Positions 1-31,284 of a stretch of 31,284 nucleotides of DNA are shown piece after piece. The DNA lies in the IMG/VR virus record IMGVR_UViG_3300025413_000996, positions 1 through 31,284 of that record; one strand, given 5' to 3'. The position numbers and the translations under genes are program-made. Origin of the DNA: a virus. The notes under the pieces are model-generated. The model did not search any database and was not told the origin of the DNA. It worked only from the letters and a program-made list of their open reading frames with translations. Every line of letters begins with the position of its first letter. The stretch's first letter is position 1.

Positions 1-805
1 TTACAACACTAGTCTTGAAGCGCCATAGTCCCTGACGCTCGCCTTTCTTAATCAATTCAACAACACCTTGTTCAATGGCACTACGCAATGCATAGTTTCC
101 TGGCTCATTGAAACTTTGGCTTGAATCAAATTCAAAACTGTCTGTATTTTGATTAAAGAATTTTAATGCTGTAATACCATCTTGTGTACTCAACAAATTC
201 TTTTCAATGGTTACTGTTGTTAAGATCTCGCCAGTTTGTACACTTACTAATCTCAAGCTGATGACAACTTGATCTTGTGTATACTGCGTGTACGGACCAA
301 TTCCAAATACAGCTACTCCTGTGCCGCCTGTAAGAACGTTACTATTGTAGTCAATAATACCGCCTTCAATAATTACACCAGCCATAGTTAATGGAGGTAA
401 TAATTTTGCATTTTGTCCTTCATAGATCTCACGAGTTTGTTTGATCATTTGACGTTCTTTTAACAAGTTGTCCAGGCCAACACGTTCTACAACTGTAAAC
501 CATTGACGATTGCCAGCTTCTTGTAGAGTCTTAATCATGTATGCTTCAGCACCTTGTGTAACGGCTGTACTGAACAAACTTAGTGTTTGACTATTTTTAC
601 GTTGACCTGTTAGATCTTTGAATCCGTATACAGCTACAGCAATCGGAGCTCCATCTGGTGACGGTAGTCGATCAATTTCCTTTGTCATATTCTTACTGAC
701 AGTAGGTTGATCTTGAATGTCTACTTTACCCAATGGGCGTACTGTACTGCAACCTGCCATCATTGCTATTGCAAGGGCTAGTGCTGTTAATTTTAATACT
801 TTCAT
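1..805 (-). CDS. csgG: CsgG-like curli secretion pore lipoprotein (C-terminus cut by window edge)
   Basis: Outer-membrane lipoprotein forming the curli secretion channel. I translated 268 codons from the ATG at 803-805; the frame is open to position 1, so only a few C-terminal residues are missing compared with the roughly 277-residue E. coli protein. The N-terminus is a lipoprotein signal with lipobox LAL-AIAMMAGC, giving a lipidated Cys19. Family landmarks include VVERVGLDNLLKERQ and the GGIIDYNSNVLTGG region of the barrel domain. The SD (AAGGAGAG) lies over the end of csgF, so the two are probably co-transcribed. No csgA, csgB or csgE is present in the window. The family call is near certain; the use a phage makes of it is unknown. 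Confidence 0.93.
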   Translation of the reverse strand, partial: MKVLKLTALALAIAMMAGCSTVRPLGKVDIQDQPTVSKNMTKEIDRLPSPDGAPIAVAVYGFKDLTGQRKNSQTLSLFSTAVTQGAEAYMIKTLQEAGNRQWFTVVERVGLDNLLKERQMIKQTREIYEGQNAKLLPPLTMAGVIIEGGIIDYNSNVLTGGTGVAVFGIGPYTQYTQDQVVISLRLVSVQTGEILTTVTIEKNLLSTQDGITALKFFNQNTDSFEFDSSQSFNEPGNYALRSAIEQGVVELIKKGERQGLWRFKTSVV

Positions 806-819
806 TTATCTAGCTCTCC

Positions 820-1332
820 TTAAAATGCAAAACTGGCAATAGGCACAGTTAATGTTGTGTTTTGACTAGCGTCTGCTTTATTTGTTACTTTTAATGTAAC
901 ACTACTTTGTCCGTTATAAGCAGGATCACTTACAGTTTTGAACCAGTTAACAGTAGTATTAGCATCTACGTTAAATGTTCCTGTTGTAGCTGGATTGCAT
1001 CCTGGAATAGCCGCTCCACTGGAATCTTTGCAAGTTGAAAACAAATTGTTACTCAACTGTGTAGCAAGTTGACTGTATACTTGGCTACTAAACAAACTCA
1101 TAAATTTAGATATCGGAGTATTTGCGGCATCAGCTTTAGCCTGTGCGGCGGCGGCATCAACTTTACTTTGATTAGCAGCCTTGTTATTCATTTCCATTTG
1201 TTGTAAAGTCAACACTTGGGTAGCCCAACCATTTCCGCTAAATGTTGGATCTTTGAATTGTTGTACTAATTCTGCGTGTGCAAAATTTGCAGTCAGTATG
1301 CAGAAAGTACTGAATACCAGTAATTTTTTCAT
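820..1332 (-). CDS. csgF: CsgF-like curli assembly protein
   Basis: Partner of CsgG; in Escherichia coli CsgF caps the CsgG pore at the cell surface. The 170-residue product has a clear Sec signal peptide (MKKLLVF to the AHA-E cleavage site near residue 20). A short mature N-terminus with QFKDPTFSGNGW follows, resembling the CsgF segment that plugs the pore. The middle is Ala/Gln/Lys-rich and may be helical; the C-terminal part is a Thr/Asn-rich beta-type domain. It is longer than E. coli CsgF (about 138 residues) because of the Ala-rich insert. It sits 14 nt upstream of csgG. The start is supported by GAGGAG about 9 nt upstream. Confidence 0.85.
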   Translation of the reverse strand: MKKLLVFSTFCILTANFAHAELVQQFKDPTFSGNGWATQVLTLQQMEMNNKAANQSKVDAAAAQAKADAANTPISKFMSLFSSQVYSQLATQLSNNLFSTCKDSSGAAIPGCNPATTGTFNVDANTTVNWFKTVSDPAYNGQSSVTLKVTNKADASQNTTLTVPIASFAF

Positions 1333-1824: not shown

Positions 1825-3279
1825 TTAATCAGTTATTTTGAAACTTAATCCTGCGCCTGACGGATTAGACGCTTCAATTTTGGTCCAAAGCCCTACATGT
1901 CCATCAATTTTACCTGGCCATAATACATGGAAGGTTAATTTACCGCTAATAACTCGGGTAAAAATTTGAACAAAATTTTCACCCAATAATTCTAAAATAA
2001 TTGGTCTAAAATCTCGCATGGGCTGAACTGTGTTTATAATGTCGACTAAATCTTTAGCCGCACAGTAAACAAGTTTTCCACCTTGACGAGATTTAGCTTT
2101 AAAAGTTCTGGAATTGATAATATTATCAAATTTAGGATCCAATGGAACTCCACGTTTAATACTAGCATCGATTGCGGCCATATCTTCTGCCGTAAATACA
2201 TGTCCACCATTTGCATTTGCAAGATCTTCATACATTGTACCTGCTAGTGCTTTTTTATGATAGTAGTTTAAAAAATTCATGCCAGCTAGCGGTTGTAGAA
2301 TAGTAGCAGATTCTTGCATTAATGTTATGAAATCGACAGCATTACCTGTTCTTTTCTTTTTCTTTAAACTATCAGGAATAGTTAATCCCTTAAGGCTTGG
2401 AGCAGCGCCAGATGCCGTTGAACCAATGCCACCTTTACTACTAATAAGGATCGTTTGTCCAGTGCTAGCATTCTGTACTCCATAGCTATCGCTTAGACTA
2501 GCATTTTGTTCTCCAGGGAAAATAAGAGTTAATCCAGAAAAATCTGCTGTGCCTAAAAAATTTAAAAATTTATTTTGTTTATCACCAGTCCACTTGGCCG
2601 TACCTTTAGCCATAGCTAAAATTCCAAGATATTCTCCAGCATCGACAGCTATTCTTGTTTGAATTTGTTCGCTGTATTTCTTAAGATCTGGATTAATACC
2701 CTGAGATATTTCTAAAGCGGCTTGTTTAATTGCGGCTCCTAGTTCCCCAGCATTGGTAAGTATTTCATTATCGGCAATTACTTGATCCAACTGTCCAGCT
2801 ACTATACCTTTATTAGCATCTAATGCTTTTTTTATTTCTTGGGATGGAGTTAATACTACCCTGTCTTTTGGTTTAGTTCCTGGCGCATTAATAGGATCTG
2901 CGGCAATACCAATACCGATAGGTTGTACATTAACATTTGATGTAACTTTACCGGAAACTGTTTGTAATTCATCTTTTTCAATCTTAGAAAAAGGCACACT
3001 TCGACCGTCTTTAGTATTAAGAAACAAACTAGGTTTCGGAGCATTTGGATTTGCACTTAGTGCTTTTAATGCTTTTTCAATTTCTGGTTGTAATCTTGCT
3101 AATTCGCCTGGAGCTGCTTGAACTTCTGCATATTTTCCATCTGGAAGTTTTTCTCTATAGATAGCGTTGGGATTTTGTAGTTTTGTTAGTAAAGCGTTTG
3201 GACGCCATCCTAGATACTTTTCTTTAAAAAGTTCACCCGGAATCAATGTAGCTTCTGAAATAATGTCTAATACACGCAT
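1825..3279 (-). CDS. Hypothetical phage protein, possible internal head protein
   Basis: A 484-residue soluble protein that I cannot assign to a known enzyme. Its N-terminus MRVLDIISEATL resembles the T4 capsid-targeting sequence (MKTYQEFIAEA), and ISE-A fits the T4 prohead protease rule (I/L)-x-E followed by a small residue. The middle is Ala/Lys/Gln-rich and probably helical; a Gly/Ser-rich stretch (near SSKGGIGSTASG) precedes a KKKKR basic patch. The C-terminal region (FRPIILELLGENFVQIFTRV onward) looks globular. The gene starts just after the bilin reductase stop. A CATAAATA motif ends 7 nt before the ATG and no SD is seen. Role unknown; packaging is inferred from the N-terminus. Confidence 0.6.
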   Translation of the reverse strand: MRVLDIISEATLIPGELFKEKYLGWRPNALLTKLQNPNAIYREKLPDGKYAEVQAAPGELARLQPEIEKALKALSANPNAPKPSLFLNTKDGRSVPFSKIEKDELQTVSGKVTSNVNVQPIGIGIAADPINAPGTKPKDRVVLTPSQEIKKALDANKGIVAGQLDQVIADNEILTNAGELGAAIKQAALEISQGINPDLKKYSEQIQTRIAVDAGEYLGILAMAKGTAKWTGDKQNKFLNFLGTADFSGLTLIFPGEQNASLSDSYGVQNASTGQTILISSKGGIGSTASGAAPSLKGLTIPDSLKKKKRTGNAVDFITLMQESATILQPLAGMNFLNYYHKKALAGTMYEDLANANGGHVFTAEDMAAIDASIKRGVPLDPKFDNIINSRTFKAKSRQGGKLVYCAAKDLVDIINTVQPMRDFRPIILELLGENFVQIFTRVISGKLTFHVLWPGKIDGHVGLWTKIEASNPSGAGLSFKITD

Positions 3280-3286
3280 AGTACAA

Positions 3287-3294
3287 TATTTATG
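3287..3294 (-). promoter_or_regulatory. Candidate late promoter (CATAAATA)
   Basis: One mismatch to TATAAATA, on the minus strand, over the stop codon of the bilin reductase gene. The predicted transcription start (about 3281) is 2 nt before the ATG at 3279. Confidence 0.5.
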
Positions 3295-3970
3295 CTATTT
3301 CAGGGAACAAGCATTCCTGTATGAAAACTTTAACATCGTCTTCATTTAACCCTAAACTAGCCATAACACGCGGTGTATGTGGATTTTGTTTTTGATTATC
3401 ACAGTAGTAGTTTTGAAAACTAGTAGTATCTAATACGGTATTGTTAGTTTCACCTACTGTATCTAGATAGTGTGCTAGTGTATTTCTAGCCATATCTGTA
3501 ATTTGATCAAGCTCTGTTTCATCACTAACATTACCAGCCGCTACCATGTGTTCTGTAAAGATACGCTGAGCCCAATCAGGCAATGTGCGTGGTTTACGCC
3601 ATTCTAGTTTAGCAACTTCCTTACCAAACCATTCAATCATTGGATGAAAATGATCTCCGGCAGGACTAAAATCATGAAAGCAACCGGTCATTTTATTCTT
3701 ACCAGCAACCACATCAAATCCATAAATTGGAGCAGGGTTGTGTGTATGTGGAAAGATGCAGCAATGCATCATCCAGAGTCCTTTTGTATCTCTTGCATCA
3801 ACCACATCAACGTGAGCACGGCGATAAGCATCAGAAGTCCATACACGATTAATCCACCCAGGTGGGTTGAATCGATCCATTCCAGGTTCAAAGATTTCAG
3901 TGCCAGTCCGGCCAAATTCAGTCTCCAATAAGTGCTGAATATTTATTAGAGTATCCCAAACTTTACTCAT
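3290..3970 (-). CDS. pcyX: Ferredoxin-dependent bilin reductase, PcyX-like
   Basis: Likely reduces biliverdin to a phycobilin using electrons from ferredoxin. The 226 residues match the FDBR family (PcyA/PebS/PcyX/HY2) in length and landmarks: HCCIFP at 69-74, PIYGFD at 81-86, and D100-F-S-P, where the Asp corresponds to the catalytic Asp105 of PcyA. PcyX enzymes, described from uncultured marine phage DNA, sit close to PcyA by sequence but make phycoerythrobilin; with a non-cyanobacterial-looking phage context PcyX is the best fit, though the subfamily call needs a tree. The start overlaps the end of heme oxygenase by 8 nt, so the substrate-making enzyme is translated just upstream. Confidence 0.85.
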   Translation of the reverse strand: MSKVWDTLINIQHLLETEFGRTGTEIFEPGMDRFNPPGWINRVWTSDAYRRAHVDVVDARDTKGLWMMHCCIFPHTHNPAPIYGFDVVAGKNKMTGCFHDFSPAGDHFHPMIEWFGKEVAKLEWRKPRTLPDWAQRIFTEHMVAAGNVSDETELDQITDMARNTLAHYLDTVGETNNTVLDTTSFQNYYCDNQKQNPHTPRVMASLGLNEDDVKVFIQECLFPEIA

Positions 3971-4514
3971 CTGTATATTCGACTAGTTCCATCATTTCTT
4001 TGAATAGCTTAGTAGCAAATCCAAAACAAATATTAGCTTCTTCTGCCATATCATCGTTAATTTTTTCACGGATAGCGGCCTTAAGCGTATCAGGATCTTC
4101 AAATTTGTACATGCGACCACTACCTGGCACTTTTTTACTAATCATTTGACCGCCAGCTAAATCTCCCATGTGACGAACATAGATATGAGCCATCAACCTG
4201 TGAGGATCATTTTTGATAGTCATTATATGATCTAAATATTCTTTGACTACTGGCAACATCTGTGCTTCGCCATCTTTTTCATCCCACAATTCTTTGTAGT
4301 CACTAAGAATAGCCGGAGCTCGTCTGATATCGGGTAGACCATTTAATAGTCCGAGTGGCATTGCACAAACTTCTAACAATTCGTAACAAGGATGTTGATT
4401 CTTTAAGAAAGTAGCATATAGTTTTGGATTAATTGTTCCAGAAAACAATATTTTCACAAACTCTTGGCGTTCGGCATTAGAATGTGCCTCTTTAGTTAAA
4501 TCTCTAAGACTCAT
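3963..4514 (-). CDS. ho1: Heme oxygenase (HO-1 type)
   Basis: Opens heme to biliverdin, CO and iron, using ferredoxin as reductant. The 183-residue all-helical protein has the proximal heme ligand H11 in KEAHSNAE and the distal-helix signature GDLAGGQ at 117-123 (family GDLSGGQ), with the Asp that orders the active-site water. It is somewhat shorter than cyanobacterial Ho1 (about 240 residues), as phage versions often are. Its ATG overlaps the clpS stop (ATGA) and its end overlaps the bilin reductase start, so clpS, ho and pcyX form one translationally coupled unit. Released iron could also feed the many iron enzymes in this window. Confidence 0.92.
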   Translation of the reverse strand: MSLRDLTKEAHSNAERQEFVKILFSGTINPKLYATFLKNQHPCYELLEVCAMPLGLLNGLPDIRRAPAILSDYKELWDEKDGEAQMLPVVKEYLDHIMTIKNDPHRLMAHIYVRHMGDLAGGQMISKKVPGSGRMYKFEDPDTLKAAIREKINDDMAEEANICFGFATKLFKEMMELVEYTDE

Positions 4515-4813
4515 TCTTCTTCCAATTTAATTTGTAATGGGTGTCCATTAGTTCTAGCTGTATTGGTTGCTTCTACAGCCTTTGCTTCTGCGATTTCAAA
4601 ACTATAAATTCCTGCAATACCGCTACCTTGTTCGTGGACTTGCAACATAATCTCAGCCGCTGTCTCTTTAGTATGCCTAAATGTTTCCATCAAAATATGG
4701 ATAACAAACTCCATTGGAGTTGTATCATCATTAAGCAGAATGACTTTCCATCTTTTTGGTTCACTGATTATTACTTTGACTTTTTCGTCGATTGCTACAT
4801 CTGTTGATGACAT
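4511..4813 (-). CDS. clpS: ClpS, N-degron adaptor for ClpAP
   Basis: Binds N-terminal degron residues and delivers substrates to the ClpA unfoldase. The 100-residue protein follows the family closely: WKVILLNDDTTPMEFVIHIL near residues 22-41, then EIMLQVHEQGSGIAGIY and a C-terminal HPLQIKLEEE. The Asn-Asp-Asp of the N-degron pocket and the TPMEFV gate are intact. A short acidic N-terminal extension is present, as in host ClpS, where it engages ClpA. It is the first gene after the hsp20 terminator and overlaps heme oxygenase by ATGA. An AAAGAGAA site precedes the ATG. It may redirect host proteolysis during infection (inference). Confidence 0.93.
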   Translation of the reverse strand: MSSTDVAIDEKVKVIISEPKRWKVILLNDDTTPMEFVIHILMETFRHTKETAAEIMLQVHEQGSGIAGIYSFEIAEAKAVEATNTARTNGHPLQIKLEEE

Positions 4814-4857: not shown

Positions 4858-5289
4858 TTATTTAACTTTAATACTACGTGGCTTTAAAGATTCTGGAATA
4901 ATACGTTCGATTTCAATAATTAACATACCATCCTTAACTTCTGCATCTTTAACTTCCATGTATTCAGCTAGTGTCCACTTTTGTTCAAAATCTCGGCTAG
5001 CTAATCCCTTGTGCAAATATTCTTTGCCTTCGGTTATAATTTCACCTTGTATACCACGAACAATTAATTGATCTTGGTCTACTTCTACTGTGATTTCATT
5101 TTTACTGAAACCTGCAACTGCAACCTCAATTGCATACTTGCTGTCACTATACTTCACAATATTGTGTGGAGGATAGTTACCATTTAGTTGCTGCAATCTT
5201 TGGTTAAAGATTTGATCAAACCCTACTAGGGCTCTACTTAGGTTGGCGAATTCCGCCGGTGTTACAGTTTTTAATTGCATTGTTGCCAT
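4858..5289 (-). CDS. hsp20: Hsp20 small heat-shock protein, IbpA-like
   Basis: ATP-independent holdase with an alpha-crystallin domain. The 143 residues carry the IbpA landmarks: ALVGFDQIFNQ near 20-30, YPPHNI, AIEVAVAGFSKNEI, YLHKGLASRDFEQKW and the C-terminal IPESLKPRSIKVK. The last contains an I-x-V motif used for oligomer contacts. Small Hsps are common in T4-like marine phages. It follows dnaK by about 66 nt, has a strong AAGGAG SD, and shares a leader block with dnaK (TTCTTGCTTAA then AAGGAGAT), suggesting common control. It is followed by a strong terminator. Confidence 0.95.
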   Translation of the reverse strand: MATMQLKTVTPAEFANLSRALVGFDQIFNQRLQQLNGNYPPHNIVKYSDSKYAIEVAVAGFSKNEITVEVDQDQLIVRGIQGEIITEGKEYLHKGLASRDFEQKWTLAEYMEVKDAEVKDGMLIIEIERIIPESLKPRSIKVK

Positions 5290-5355: not shown

Positions 5356-7269
5356 TTAGTCTTTTTTCTCTGTGTCAACTTCTGTGAAGCTAGCATCGAC
5401 AGTTTGTTCACCCGATTCAGCTGCTTTAGCATCTGCTTCTGCTTTAGCACTTTCGGCTGCTTGTTTCTTAGCCATAACTGGTCCTGCCGCTTCAAAGAAG
5501 CTTTGTACTGACTTTTCGATTGCTTCCTTGTCTTCTCCGGCGCAAGCTGTTTCAACAGCTTTGGCTGCATCATCGAATTTATTCTGCTCATCTTCAGTCA
5601 ATTGATCTTTGTACGTGTCATAATCTTTCTTGATACTATGTGTAGTGCCTTCAGCATTATTACGTGCTTGGATCAATTCTGCTGCTTTCTTATCAGATTC
5701 GGCATTCTCTTCAGCTTCTTTAACCATACGCTGGATTTCAGCTTCAGTTAAACCTGAATCTGATTTGATAGTAATCTTGTTTTCTTTGCCAGTATTTTTA
5801 TCTTTGGCACTTACATTAAGAATACCATTAGCATCGATATCTAGGGTAACTTCAATTTGTGGAGTACCACGCATTGCTGGAGCAATACCTTCTAAATTGA
5901 ATTCTCCTAGTAATTTATTATACTTAAACAAGTCACGTTCGCCTTGAGCAACTTTAATAGTTACAGCTGGTTGATTGTCTTCTGCTGTTGAGAAAACTTG
6001 TGAATGTTTAGTTGGAATTGTTGTATTTTTACTAATTAATTTTGTAAACACACCGCCCATTGTTTCGATACCTAATGTCAATGGAGTTACGTCCAATAAC
6101 AATACGTCTGTCTTGTCGCCTGCTAGAACAGCACCTTGTACTGCAGCACCTGCGGCAACTGCTTCGTCTGGGTTAACATCTTTACGTGGAGCCTTGCTAA
6201 ACAACTGTTCAACGGCTTCTTGAACTTTAGGCATACGTGTTTGGCCACCGACTAGGATAACTTCGTCGATATCTGCAGCTGTAACTTTAGCATCAGCCAT
6301 TGCAATCTTACATGGTTCGATTGAACGTTGGATTAGTTTTTCAACCATAGATTCAAACTTGGCACGACTAATAGTTACATTCATGTGCTTAGGACCGCTA
6401 GCATCTGCTGTAATATAAGGTAAGTTGACACTAGTTGATTGTGCTGACGATAATTCAATCTTAGCTTTTTCTGCAGCTTCTTTCAATCGTTGTAAAGCAA
6501 GTACGTCGTTCTTGAGATCAATACCATTATCTTTCTTGAATTCATCGACTAGATAATCCATGATAACTTGGTCAAAGTCTTCACCTCCAAGGAATGTATC
6601 GCCATTTGTTGATAAAACTTCGATTTGCTTGTCACCGTCAATGTTGGCGATTTCAATAATTGAAATATCAAATGTACCACCACCTAAGTCGTATACAGCA
6701 ATTTTACGATCTTTCTTAGATTCTTTATCAACACCATATGCTAGTGCAGCCGCAGTCGGCTCATTGATAATACGTAAAACTTCCAAGCCAGCAATACGGC
6801 CAGCATCTTTAGTTGCTTGACGTTGACTGTCGTTAAAGTAAGCAGGGACTGTAATAACCGCTTGAGTAACAGTTGTGCCTAAATAGTCTTCGGCAGTCTT
6901 TTTCATCTTACGTAAAACTTCGGCACTAACTTGTTGCGGTGCAAGTTTTTCACCATTTGCCTCGATCCATGCATCACCATTATCAGCTTTGATAATAGAG
7001 TATGGCATCAAGTCGATGTCTTTTTGGACTTCTTTTTCTTCAAACTTACGTCCAATAAGACGCTTACTTGCGTAAATTGTATTCTTTGGGTTTGTGACTG
7101 CTTGTCGTTTTGCTGTTGCACCAACTAGGATTTCGTCCTTTGTATATGCAATGATCGAGGGTGTTGTTCTTGCGCCTTCGCTATTTTCAATAACTTTTGC
7201 TACTCCGTTTTCTAGAATAGCTACGCAACTGTTTGTTGTACCTAAATCGATACCGATGATTTTGCTCAT
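5356..7269 (-). CDS. dnaK: DnaK, Hsp70 chaperone (full length)
   Basis: ATP-dependent chaperone. Translation from the ATG at 7267-7269 gives 637 residues, the same size as E. coli DnaK (638). An in-frame upstream extension of 45 codons is rejected because [14 protein letters not shown] is the canonical start and AAAGGAGAT lies 6 nt before it. Visible parts: phosphate-1 loop GIDLGTTNS at 6-14; [24 protein letters not shown]; the interdomain linker [13 protein letters not shown]; and a beta-sandwich plus helical lid. The acidic tail contains [14 protein letters not shown]. No dnaJ or grpE is in the window. Hsp70 genes are rare in phages. Its own late promoter and 5' stem-loop imply late expression. 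Confidence 0.97.
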
Positions 7270-13184: not shown

Positions 13185-13511
13185 TTATACTCGAAAACTT
13201 TCACCGCAACCGCAACGGTCGCGTTCGTTTGGATTGATGAAATCAAAACCTTCATTAAGTCCGTTGCGGACCCAATCCATAGTTAAACCATTAAGGTATG
13301 GGTCATCTTTCAAACTGACCAGTACACAGAAATCGTTTTGGGCATAATTAATTATGCCTTCTTCTCCGTCATACTTGTCCACATATTCCAACACATAGGC
13401 CAGGCCACTACAGCCTGTGGTTCTTACACCTATGCGAATACCAACGCCCTTACCGCGTTTGGCTAAATTTTTTTTAATTTGATTTTTGGCTTGATCAGTT
13501 ACTATTATCAT
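13185..13511 (-). CDS. iscA: IscA/ErpA-type Fe-S cluster carrier
   Basis: A-type carrier that receives Fe-S clusters from a scaffold such as IscU and passes them to apo-enzymes. The ATG at 13511 gives 108 residues (a TTG two codons earlier is less likely). All three ligand cysteines are present at family spacing: C34 in TTGCSGLAY, and C100 and C102 in CGCGESF. The body is somewhat more acidic and divergent than host IscA. The start overlaps the end of the radical SAM gene by 17 nt, so the carrier is made alongside its likely client. It is the last gene of the iron/Fe-S operon. Confidence 0.93.
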   Translation of the reverse strand: MIIVTDQAKNQIKKNLAKRGKGVGIRIGVRTTGCSGLAYVLEYVDKYDGEEGIINYAQNDFCVLVSLKDDPYLNGLTMDWVRNGLNEGFDFINPNERDRCGCGESFRV

Positions 13512-15102
13512 ATACAAAATTCAAAAAATAATCATTGTTTATCAAATTCCATTTAGTTTCATGTACGTGAAAACAAGCACTTTGCGGAGATGTGTCAGGC
13601 ATACCCGGTGCAAATTTTTTGGTAAAGAAAAAGTTATTATGATTGTGCCAATTGTCATATAAATTTTCTTCAAGGATATTTATTTCATCTGATTGCAATA
13701 GCTTATCAACTAACGTTTCGATATCAATATATCGTTTTCTTAATCTTATACTTAACAAGGTATTGTATATAATAGTCAGCATGTTCATTTTTACAAAATC
13801 TTTTTTTGTAAAACTTACGCATGATTCGGGAAAAATTCCGTGGAAAAATTTGCCATCAATTACCCGGGTGCTGTTACTATAAGTAAATTTCCAACGATCT
13901 TGATAATCTTTATCAATGGCTGCCGGGCTGGCCGGAAGCAATTCGCTTATAAATGGCATCAGTTCCACAGGACTTTTAGCTATTAGCGACAAACTGTCAC
14001 GCCACGTGTCTACAGTTTGCCCTGGCAATCCTTGTATAATCTGTACCCATAATGGAATATTGGGATAAGATTGATATATCTCGTTGATTATTTTTTCGTG
14101 TTCGTCCCAACCAACATCGGGTCTGTCAATATTTTTTAATACAGATACATTGGGATCTTGAACAGATATCATATAGCGTTCAACTAGTTTGGCTTTGCCC
14201 ATTATATGAAAAATTTTTAAGTTATTCTCTTTTTTTAATTTACTAAAATTGGCTTCTAGATGGAATTTTGCATCATTTTCAAGATTCTTTTTGGCAAAAT
14301 AATCAACAACATCGATGTCTTCGTTATACTGACCAACATTTGCATCTGCTAAAAAAATACATCTAATACCTAATTCGTGGAAAAAATCAATTTCTTCCTT
14401 ATATGTATTTTTACGTCGAGATACTTTGTTACTGAGTCCGCTATTCCAATCGCAGAAAGTGCAGGCATATGGACATCCTCTGGTAAGTTCATAAGGTATT
14501 TGTATGTGTTCTAAAGATTTACCGTTTTTTACTTCTTGTTCGATCATTTTTGTAAATAATGTTCTGTTTGAAGTATACGGACTAGTAACTAATTGCGGAA
14601 CATATTTGAATTGACTTACTATCTGTTTGCCTTGATCTTGCCAGGCAAGATTAGACGTATTGAACGCAATAAGTTTTCGATCAAATATAATACTTTCTAG
14701 CAAAGATGCAAATGCATTTTCTCCGGCACCGTAAACCGCATAATCAATAAATGGATATTTTTTGAAAAAATTATCATCGATATGCACATCTATACTAGGA
14801 CCACCTGCTACGATTTTTGTATTAGACAATCTAGAATGTATTCTTTCCAATTGCAACATCAATTGACTGTGATTCCAAATATAATGACTAGAACACAATA
14901 AATCTACTTTTTGATCATTGCACAGTGACACTAAATCGTCATCATCAATTTGGTATTGTTTTGGAACTAACCACTCAATTTTATCTTTGATGTCAGGGCA
15001 ATGTGTGTCTATATGGGTTTTCAGATATAAAACAGCTACGCCTAACTCAAGCCTAGGATCCGTAGATACACTAGTAGCGTGATAAAACAACACCTTAAGC
15101 AT
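13495..15102 (-). CDS. Radical SAM enzyme with N-terminal B12-binding-like domain
   Basis: A 535-residue protein. Residues 1-150 form a Rossmann-like domain (LKVLFYHAT, KIVAGGPSID, YAVYGAGENAF) like the cobalamin-binding domain of class B radical SAM proteins, but no DxHxxG cobalamin motif is visible, so B12 binding is uncertain. The radical SAM core starts near 200 with TRGCPYACTFCDWN; C210, C214 and C217 ligate the 4Fe-4S cluster. HMGKAKLVERYMISVQD and QIIQGLPGQT are later core landmarks, and a C-terminal extension of about 130 residues follows. Substrate unknown. It overlaps iscU and iscA at its two ends, strongly suggesting it is the client of that machinery. Confidence 0.88.
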   Translation of the reverse strand: MLKVLFYHATSVSTDPRLELGVAVLYLKTHIDTHCPDIKDKIEWLVPKQYQIDDDDLVSLCNDQKVDLLCSSHYIWNHSQLMLQLERIHSRLSNTKIVAGGPSIDVHIDDNFFKKYPFIDYAVYGAGENAFASLLESIIFDRKLIAFNTSNLAWQDQGKQIVSQFKYVPQLVTSPYTSNRTLFTKMIEQEVKNGKSLEHIQIPYELTRGCPYACTFCDWNSGLSNKVSRRKNTYKEEIDFFHELGIRCIFLADANVGQYNEDIDVVDYFAKKNLENDAKFHLEANFSKLKKENNLKIFHIMGKAKLVERYMISVQDPNVSVLKNIDRPDVGWDEHEKIINEIYQSYPNIPLWVQIIQGLPGQTVDTWRDSLSLIAKSPVELMPFISELLPASPAAIDKDYQDRWKFTYSNSTRVIDGKFFHGIFPESCVSFTKKDFVKMNMLTIIYNTLLSIRLRKRYIDIETLVDKLLQSDEINILEENLYDNWHNHNNFFFTKKFAPGMPDTSPQSACFHVHETKWNLINNDYFLNFVYDNSN

Positions 15103-30620: not shown

Positions 30621-31037
30621 ATGACAACAAAGTTTTCACACGTCAAAGGTTCTGAAGTGGAGTTTAAAGGTGGCGGGTTACGCGACTTTTTCTTATACAA
30701 GGATCTTGGGGTAGCAGATGCTACCAACGGGCGTGTTCTAGCACACATCACCAAGGCCAACTTACCCCCAGAAAACTCAGGCGGCACAGGTTGGCACATT
30801 CACGTAGCTGAGTTCCAAATCGTTTATATGTTAAAAGGTTGGGCCAAGTTCATGTATGAAGACAAAATACACCTAGTTGAAGCAGGCGATTGCGTACAGC
30901 AACGTCCGGGTATTGTACACTATTTGTACGACTACAGTCCAGACATGGAATACTTAGAAGTTATCATGCCCGCAGACTATGGCACTGAGCCAGCTGAAGG
31001 GCCCTGTGAAATACCACCGCCAAGTGCTTGGGAATAA
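30621..31037 (+). CDS. Cupin-domain protein
   Basis: A 138-residue single-domain cupin. Metal-binding motif 1 is WHIHVAEFQIVYMLKG, with two His and a Gln in place of the more common Glu. Motif 2 is GDCVQQRPGIVHYLYDY, with the late His. The fold supports a dioxygenase, isomerase or binding role, but no substrate can be named. AGGAGG and a late promoter precede it. The next gene starts 3 nt after its stop. Confidence 0.85.
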   Translation: MTTKFSHVKGSEVEFKGGGLRDFFLYKDLGVADATNGRVLAHITKANLPPENSGGTGWHIHVAEFQIVYMLKGWAKFMYEDKIHLVEAGDCVQQRPGIVHYLYDYSPDMEYLEVIMPADYGTEPAEGPCEIPPPSAWE

Positions 31038-31040
31038 TCA

Positions 31041-31284
31041 ATGACACTAGTTTACATTCATGGTGCCAGTGCCACAAGTGAAAGTTTCAACTTTCTTAGA
31101 AGTAAACTGGGCAAGGGCATAGACATCAACTATGACAGCCGTAATGGGTTTGAAAATAATCTAGCAGAAATCATAGCCCAATTGAAAGATGTTGAAGACA
31201 TGGCATTTATAGCACACAGCTTGGGCGGTATTTACGCACTACATGTGGCCAATGCCATGCCTGACCAAGTCGTAGGTGCTGTTA
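31041..31284 (+). CDS. Alpha/beta hydrolase (partial, runs off window)
   Basis: 81 codons visible. MTLVYIHGASATSESF gives the strand and oxyanion HG motif, and FIAHSLGGIYALH the nucleophile elbow (S-L-G-G) of alpha/beta hydrolases; the catalytic Asp and His would lie beyond the window. It is probably co-translated with the cupin. Esterase, lipase-like or other activity cannot be told from this part. Confidence 0.85.
   Translation, partial: MTLVYIHGASATSESFNFLRSKLGKGIDINYDSRNGFENNLAEIIAQLKDVEDMAFIAHSLGGIYALHVANAMPDQVVGAV

What the first reader, a model, noticed from the sequence alone, without database searches (positions are those of the whole stretch)
3290..4514. Heme oxygenase plus PcyX-like bilin reductase in a probably non-cyanobacterial phage
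The two genes overlap and make a heme-to-phycobilin route. Such ho-pcyX pairs are known from uncultured marine phages, and PcyX makes phycoerythrobilin. The surrounding genes (curli pore, bS21, IscU, DnaK) point to an alphaproteobacterial-type host that has no phycobilisome, so the use of the pigment is open: light sensing, iron release or redox. No lyase, phytochrome or ferredoxin gene is in the window.
Basis: partly seen in the sequence, partly recalled or inferred. Interest (0 to 1): 0.75.

Follow-up and report, generated by a model that had tools for sequence, protein, structure and literature searches.

The report
Phage heme-to-bilin gene pair (HO–PcyX)
This virus of a probably non-photosynthetic bacterium carries two joined genes predicted to break down heme and reduce the product to a pink pigment (phycoerythrobilin); such pairs are already known, but here the pair sits in a conserved block with protein-quality-control genes, and what the pigment does in such hosts remains unknown.

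Summary
ORFs 3963-4514(-) (heme oxygenase) and 3290-3970(-) (ferredoxin-dependent bilin reductase, FDBR) overlap by 8 nt. The FDBR is PcyX: its best solved relative is PcyX_EBK42635 (5owg, E=4e-67; cyanobacterial PcyA only 55 bits), it carries the PcyX-specific Asp55 instead of PcyA Glu76, and it falls in one Asp55 clade with 5owg (bootstrap 99). Predicted product: phycoerythrobilin. Such pairs are published, including in an isolated SAR11 phage (Mosig EXVC030M), so this is a new member of a known kind. Additions here: (i) in 59 of 61 distinct relatives the pair lies directly behind clpS, in a block DnaK-HSP20-ClpS-HO-FDBR; (ii) the HO gene was replaced in place by a divergent but intact HO; (iii) in a few phages the same slot holds FDBRs with Ser/Cys at position 55, and other phages have Glu or Lys; (iv) about 30 related records hold no phytochrome, phycobiliprotein, photosystem or ferrochelatase gene, and only Mosig has a ferredoxin; 8 of 30 have 5-ALA synthase. 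A non-cyanobacterial host is supported; an alphaproteobacterial one is not shown. The physiological role remains inferred.

The parts
3290..3970 (-). PcyX-type ferredoxin-dependent bilin reductase (226 aa; Asp55, His69, Asp86 = PcyA Glu76/His88/Asp105 positions)
   Evidence: Pfam PF05996, 5owg 4e-67, residues, tree, AF2/Foldseek
3963..4514 (-). Heme oxygenase (183 aa; proximal His11, GDLAGGQ motif at 117-123)
   Evidence: Pfam PF01126, PDB HO hits, catalytic residues conserved in all 90 compared
4511..4813 (-). ClpS, adaptor of the ClpAP protease (100 aa), 4-nt overlap with HO
   Evidence: PF02617 4.4e-31; present before HO in 59 of 61 distinct relatives and 68/68 ClpS-scan loci with room
4858..5289 (-). 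Small heat-shock protein HSP20
   Evidence: PF00011 9.3e-16; conserved upstream of ClpS
5356..7269 (-). DnaK (Hsp70), start taken at the [10 protein letters not shown] methionine
   Evidence: ORF; conserved in 55 of 58 distinct relatives with room upstream
820..1332 (-). CsgF-like curli accessory protein
   Evidence: PF10614 3.5e-7; synteny
2..805 (-). CsgG curli pore (runs to the window end)
   Evidence: PF03783 1.1e-46; nearest isolates Melnitz/HTVC008M
1825..3279 (-). Hypervariable ~500-aa protein between FDBR and the curli genes; no known family
   Evidence: no Pfam/PHROG match; several different families in this slot in relatives
13185..13517 (-). IscA-type Fe-S carrier (context)
   Evidence: PF01521
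15095..15478 (-). IscU/NifU-N Fe-S scaffold (context)
   Evidence: PF01592 1.2e-54

Best explanation
The window carries a two-enzyme heme-degrading pathway of the published phage HO-PcyX kind. HO opens heme to biliverdin IXalpha (plus CO and Fe2+); PcyX then takes four electrons from host ferredoxin and reduces biliverdin, via 15,16-dihydrobiliverdin, to phycoerythrobilin (PEB). The genes overlap each other and clpS and are probably translated as one unit behind HSP20 and DnaK. In a host without phycobilisomes the likeliest use is heme turnover with PcyX as a biliverdin sink: removing biliverdin keeps HO running, frees iron and leaves a reduced, radical-scavenging bilin; making a chromophore for a phage-encoded protein is unlikely. 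SHOWN: gene identity, overlaps, catalytic residues, clade, purifying selection, constant pairing, no phage chromoprotein found. INFERRED: PEB as product, host ferredoxin as donor, the physiological role. Confidence is about 0.85 for 'PcyX, makes PEB' and about 0.4 for the biliverdin-sink role; the overall figure given here is for the pathway together with a sink-like role.
For: PcyX identity: 5owg 4e-67 vs PcyA 7e-14; Asp55 in window, Mosig, 5owg and 167 of 168 sequences of the two phage sets, Glu in all four PcyA references; Asp55 enzymes form one clade, UFBoot 99; fold. Pairing: HO upstream of FDBR in all 80 relatives, overlap in 51 of 61 distinct regions, and a 4-nt ClpS/HO overlap in 51 of 59; dN/dS well below 1. 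Need for both steps: HO swapped for a divergent HO in place (e.g. L002 vs L011: FDBR 91% identical, HO 35%) with catalytic residues intact in all 90. For a sink rather than a dedicated chromophore: FDBRs with Ser/Cys at 55 occupy the same HSP20-ClpS-HO slot and Glu/Lys forms sit beside HO in other phages, so the exact product seems exchangeable; no phytochrome, no phycobiliprotein above cut-off and no photosystem gene in about 30 relatives.
Against: Sequence does not always predict FDBR products (PMC13193486). Strict Asp55 conservation within the clade argues that the product may matter. 8 of 30 relatives also carry 5-ALA synthase, which feeds heme synthesis and fits pigment production better than net iron release. 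A host chromoprotein cannot be excluded because the host is unknown.
Confidence: 0.45

Rival explanations
1. The pair makes a chromophore: PEB (or its isomer) is loaded on a host phytochrome or a bilin-binding globin and changes light signalling, or locks a photoreceptor, during infection.
For: The freshwater phage CB_2 pair (PcyA type) supplies a functional phytochrome in E. coli (PMC11480375); a related hemO-pcyA-alaS island in Bradyrhizobium sits beside a phytochrome (same paper); 5-ALA synthase in 8 of 30 relatives suggests drive towards bilin; Asp55 is strictly conserved in the clade.
Against: No PHY domain in 30 related records, no phycobiliprotein above cut-off; the FDBR type at the slot is exchangeable.
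Confidence: 0.25
2. ClpS-HO-PcyX is one tetrapyrrole-control module: phage ClpS redirects host ClpAP, for instance to remodel tetrapyrrole synthesis, while HO and PcyX drain heme.
For: ClpS directly precedes HO with a 4-nt overlap in 51 of 59 distinct relatives; 68 of 68 ClpS loci with enough downstream sequence also carry HO and FDBR, as do contigs of a separate FDBR lineage, L083-L086. In plants ClpS selects glutamyl-tRNA reductase for Clp degradation, and bacterial GluTR is turned over by Clp and Lon (PMC6597238).
Against: DnaK and HSP20 in the same block suggest general proteostasis; Mosig-type phages keep HO-PcyX without ClpS beside it; ClpS of isolated phages occurs in records that the HO search did not return. 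Linkage is not mechanism.
Confidence: 0.15
3. The FDBR is in fact a PcyA and makes phycocyanobilin, as shown for the freshwater phage CB_2.
For: Freshwater phage CB_2 has a PcyA in a comparable cassette (PMC11480375).
Against: CB_2 lacks Asp55; the window has it and groups with biochemically proven PcyX 5owg, away from Glu55 forms.
Confidence: 0.08
4. The phage infects a cyanobacterium and the pair serves phycobilisomes, as proposed for cyanophage PebS.
For: Cyanophages carry HO and FDBR genes.
Against: No psbA-family gene in 32 relatives while both cyanophage controls score; nearest isolate homologue is from a SAR11 phage at 51%, cyanophage FDBRs only 23-28%.
Confidence: 0.04

Closest known systems
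HO-PcyX cassette of marine phages and pelagiphage Mosig EXVC030M (MT647606)
   Same: HO gene overlapping and preceding a PcyX with Asp55; 47% (HO) and 51% (FDBR) identical; T4-like phage, no psbA
   Different: Mosig type lies next to neck genes gp14/gp13 and 2OG-Fe(II) oxygenases; the window type lies behind DnaK-HSP20-ClpS and before CsgF-CsgG; Mosig has its own ferredoxin
hemO-pcyA/X-alaS cassette of freshwater phage CB_2 (PMC11480375)
   Same: Phage HO plus PcyA/PcyX-clade FDBR; alaS elsewhere in the genome is also seen in 8 of 30 window relatives
   Different: CB_2 FDBR lacks Asp55 and makes phycocyanobilin; the window enzyme has Asp55
Characterised PcyX_EBK42635 (PDB 5owg)
   Same: Same clade, same catalytic residues, same fold
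   Different: 47% identity; window enzyme not assayed
Cyanophage PebS (P-SSM2) and PcyA (P-RSM4, P-SSM4)
   Same: FDBR superfamily, phage-borne; PebS also makes PEB
   Different: PebS belongs to another FDBR branch (Asn at the His69 position); PcyA has Glu at position 55

Membership tests
PcyX (phage phycoerythrobilin synthase) | FDBR domain and fold | tested here: met
   PF05996 9.7e-16; AF2 model, best match 5owg
PcyX (phage phycoerythrobilin synthase) | Asp at the PcyA Glu76 position (PcyX Asp55), with catalytic His and Asp (PcyA His88/Asp105) | tested here: met
   D55, H69, D86
PcyX (phage phycoerythrobilin synthase) | Clusters with characterised PcyX, apart from PcyA | tested here: met
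PcyX (phage phycoerythrobilin synthase) | Converts biliverdin to PEB via 15,16-DHBV | not testable with these tools
   needs enzyme assay
PcyA | Catalytic Glu76 | tested here: not met
   Asp in its place
PebS | Placement in the PebA/PebS branch | tested here: not met
   groups in the PcyA/PcyX branch, support 100
Heme oxygenase (HO-1 type) | HO domain, proximal His and distal GDxxGGQ helix | tested here: met
   PF01126 5.3e-22; His11 and GDLAGGQ
Cyanophage | Photosystem II psbA or related genes | tested here: not met
   0 of 32 related records, 2 of 2 cyanophage controls; the window itself is a 31-kb fragment
Pelagimyophage (SAR11 phage) | Close relation of core and neighbourhood genes to isolated SAR11 myophages | tested here: inconclusive
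   curli pore 42-46% to HTVC008M/Melnitz; a 191-kb relative shows only distant TerL and sheath similarity to Mosig; host not identified

The most novel reading that the evidence does not exclude
In these phages the HO-FDBR position is a slot in which bilin reductases with different product-determining residues (Asp, or Ser/Cys at the same slot; Glu or Lys in other phages) and different HOs are exchanged, tied to ClpS and chaperones: a tetrapyrrole/proteostasis takeover module of heterotroph-infecting phages, including FDBR types (Ser/Cys/Lys) whose reaction has not been described.
Probability: 0.2. Interest if true: 0.65.

Novelty: new member of a known kind. Interest (0 to 1): 0.4.

Why it matters
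Phages of non-photosynthetic bacteria that carry a heme-to-bilin route pose an open question recognised in the literature (PMC11480375). The constant coupling to clpS, in-place replacement of HO and the exchange of FDBR types at one slot give testable constraints: whatever the function, it needs HO plus some FDBR, seems tolerant of the FDBR type, and travels with protein-quality-control genes.

Tried and rejected
Ferrochelatase as part of the cassette: rejected, PF00762 0 of 34 records and Mosig_00059 ('putative ferrochelatase') has no Pfam match. Methanotroph host via pmoC: PF04896 0 of 32, but no control genome scored, so uninformative. Late promoter TATAAATA near the cassette: 3 in the window, 4.2 expected by chance, none at the cassette. 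Riboswitch or tmRNA: no Rfam hit. Bacterial PcyA outgroups: none in a sample of 398 genomes of one phylum apart from the starting MAG itself, none in plasmids; the single genome-contig scan gave four contigs binned in MAGs of unrelated groups, taken as mis-binned phage. Sample habitats from IMG identifiers: no paper found, so 'freshwater' for the window group is not claimed. Phycobilisome hit in L039's record: 16.9 bits, below cut-off, inside a 2305-aa frame, taken as spurious.

Full report
OBSERVATION. Two ORFs on the - strand, 3963-4514 (183 aa) and 3290-3970 (226 aa), overlap by 8 nt; the first also overlaps ORF 4511-4813 by 4 nt. Pfam names them heme oxygenase, ferredoxin-dependent bilin reductase (FDBR) and ClpS, all above cut-off. 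The window is a whole 31,284-base virus record, by its gene content a fragment of a larger phage. Neighbours: HSP20, DnaK, bS21, MazG, an exoribonuclease, IscA, a radical SAM protein, IscU, TauD-like dioxygenase, Hc1, PAAR, glutaredoxin, NrdB, NrdA, a tail protein, CsgF and CsgG.

WHICH BILIN REDUCTASE. The best solved relative is PcyX_EBK42635 (5owg; 229 bits, 4e-67); Synechocystis PcyA scores 55 bits. The PDB alignments and the mutant names of the PcyA entries (E76Q, H88Q, D105N, H74 variants) map PcyA Glu76/His88/Asp105 to window Asp55/His69/Asp86. Asp55 is the PcyX-specific catalytic residue named in PMC11480375, where its absence is given as the likely reason why the freshwater phage CB_2 enzyme is a PcyA; that its numbering equals the window's is my inference from the alignment with Mosig and 5owg. 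Asp55 is present in 87 of 88 distinct sequences of the window-type set and 80 of 80 Mosig-type enzymes; the four PcyA references have Glu. In a maximum-likelihood tree the Asp55 enzymes, including 5owg, Mosig and the window, form one clade (UFBoot 99); cyanobacterial and cyanophage PcyA lie outside, and PebS/PebA/PebB on another branch. The AlphaFold2 model (pLDDT 94.6) has 5owg as best Foldseek hit. The predicted product is therefore PEB; the FDBR literature warns that products are not always predictable from sequence (PMC13193486).

RELATIVES AND GENE ORDER. A scan of IMG/VR gave 278 relatives, 80 kept. All 80 have HO before the FDBR (L032 has a ~1.5-kb insertion between them); 78 of 80 have ClpS before HO, and most have HSP20 and DnaK before that. 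Collapsed to 61 distinct HO-FDBR regions: ClpS and HSP20 in 59; the ClpS/HO overlap is exactly 4 nt in 51 of 59; HO and FDBR overlap in 51 of 61; DnaK in 55 of 58 with room. A separate scan with ClpS gave 68 of 68 loci with enough downstream sequence carrying HO and FDBR; many of these contigs are the same as in the first scan, so it is not fully independent. Four contigs from MAG bins, 51-54% identical, also have HSP20-ClpS-HO-FDBR, two of them with a gene inserted between HO and FDBR, a carbon-nitrogen hydrolase in L085. A second arrangement, in isolated SAR11 phage Mosig and most of 80 further contigs, has HO-PcyX next to neck genes gp14/gp13 without ClpS beside it. Among isolated phages ClpS occurs in 26 records; none of those listed is in the HO search result.

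SELECTION AND SWAPPING. Median pairwise dN/dS is 0.10 (FDBR), 0.13 (ClpS) and 0.21 (HO), from unsaturated pairs only. HO comes in two types at the same place: 61 sequences at 53% or more identity to the window (the window included) and 29 at 49% or less; the proximal His and the GDLxGGQ motif are kept in all 90, bar L/M at its third position in four. Some FDBRs about 90% identical have HOs only 35-44% identical. HO was therefore replaced in place while the pair was kept. At the FDBR position, L116/L281 has Cys and L282-L284 Ser at position 55, in the same HSP20-ClpS-HO block (DnaK also found in all but L283); other contigs have Glu (L285-L287, L294-L306) or Lys (L307-L314), mostly beside HO. 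No characterised FDBR known to me has Ser, Cys or Lys there.

WHAT IS MISSING. In 30 related records up to 280 kb: no phytochrome PHY domain, no phycobiliprotein above cut-off, Fer2 ferredoxin only in Mosig. Photo_RC is absent from 32 records and present in both cyanophage controls; ferrochelatase is absent from 34. 5-ALA synthase is present in 8 of 30. Many records are fragments. Two long relatives (169 and 191 kb) carry 34 and 40 tRNAs and keep the order NrdA-NrdB ... DnaK-HSP20-ClpS-HO-PcyX-CsgF-CsgG; only one shows weak TerL and sheath similarity to Mosig.

MECHANISM. Shown: the genes, their overlaps, intact catalytic residues, selection, constant pairing. Established for the families: HO makes biliverdin, CO and iron; PcyX reduces biliverdin to PEB with ferredoxin. 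Inferred: host ferredoxin as donor, PEB as product, and the role. I favour heme turnover with PcyX as biliverdin sink, because the pair is constant while the HO lineage and the FDBR type are exchangeable, and because no phage chromoprotein is found. Against it, 5-ALA synthase in a quarter of relatives points to making bilin on purpose, which keeps the chromophore hypothesis alive. The ClpS link might reflect control of tetrapyrrole enzymes (ClpS selects GluTR in plants, and bacterial GluTR is a Clp/Lon substrate; PMC6597238) or simply general proteostasis.

KNOWN OR NEW. HO-PcyX cassettes, their presence in SAR11 phages, freshwater versions and the open question of their use are published (PMC11480375); PcyX is stated to occur in phages but not cyanophages (PMC13193486). 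Curli pores in such phages are published (PMC7029224, PMC9004378). The window is a new member. I did not find the ClpS linkage, the in-place HO replacement or the Ser/Cys/Lys forms described in the papers I could read; the search was limited to an open-access library and to main texts.

HOST. Cyanobacterial host: unlikely. Alphaproteobacterial host: possible, not shown.

Noticed in passing
L116:6844-7503 (same contig as L281), L282-L284, L307-L314: Phage bilin reductases with Cys/Ser or Lys at the product-determining position (PcyA Glu76/PcyX Asp55); Cys/Ser forms sit in the same HSP20-ClpS-HO block as the window's PcyX. Reaction unknown.
   Followed up: partly
window 1825-3279: The slot between the FDBR and the curli genes is hypervariable among relatives, filled by several apparently unrelated ~500-aa proteins without known family.
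   Followed up: partly
L179 (G004:C1:22831-22904): A 169-kb relative with 34 tRNAs includes a predicted tRNA with CTA anticodon (would read amber codons); possible stop-codon suppression, or a false call.
   Followed up: no
window 30621-31283: Cupin and hydrolase-like genes on the + strand, opposite to nearly all other genes of the window.
   Followed up: no
L044 / record G008 (85,853 bases): The FDBR occurs twice in inverted orientation (26.3 and 33.0 kb); probably a palindromic assembly artefact.
   Followed up: no
L083-L086: PcyX cassettes inside GTDB genome bins of four unrelated groups; most likely mis-binned phage contigs.
   Followed up: partly
MT647606.1 43207-43977: Mosig gene annotated 'putative ferrochelatase' has no ferrochelatase match; the annotation looks wrong (its N-terminus resembles a 2OG-Fe(II) dioxygenase by eye).
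   Followed up: partly
L085:6916-7971 (and a similar insertion in L086): A carbon-nitrogen hydrolase gene inserted between HO and PcyX in contigs from marine MAG bins.
   Followed up: partly
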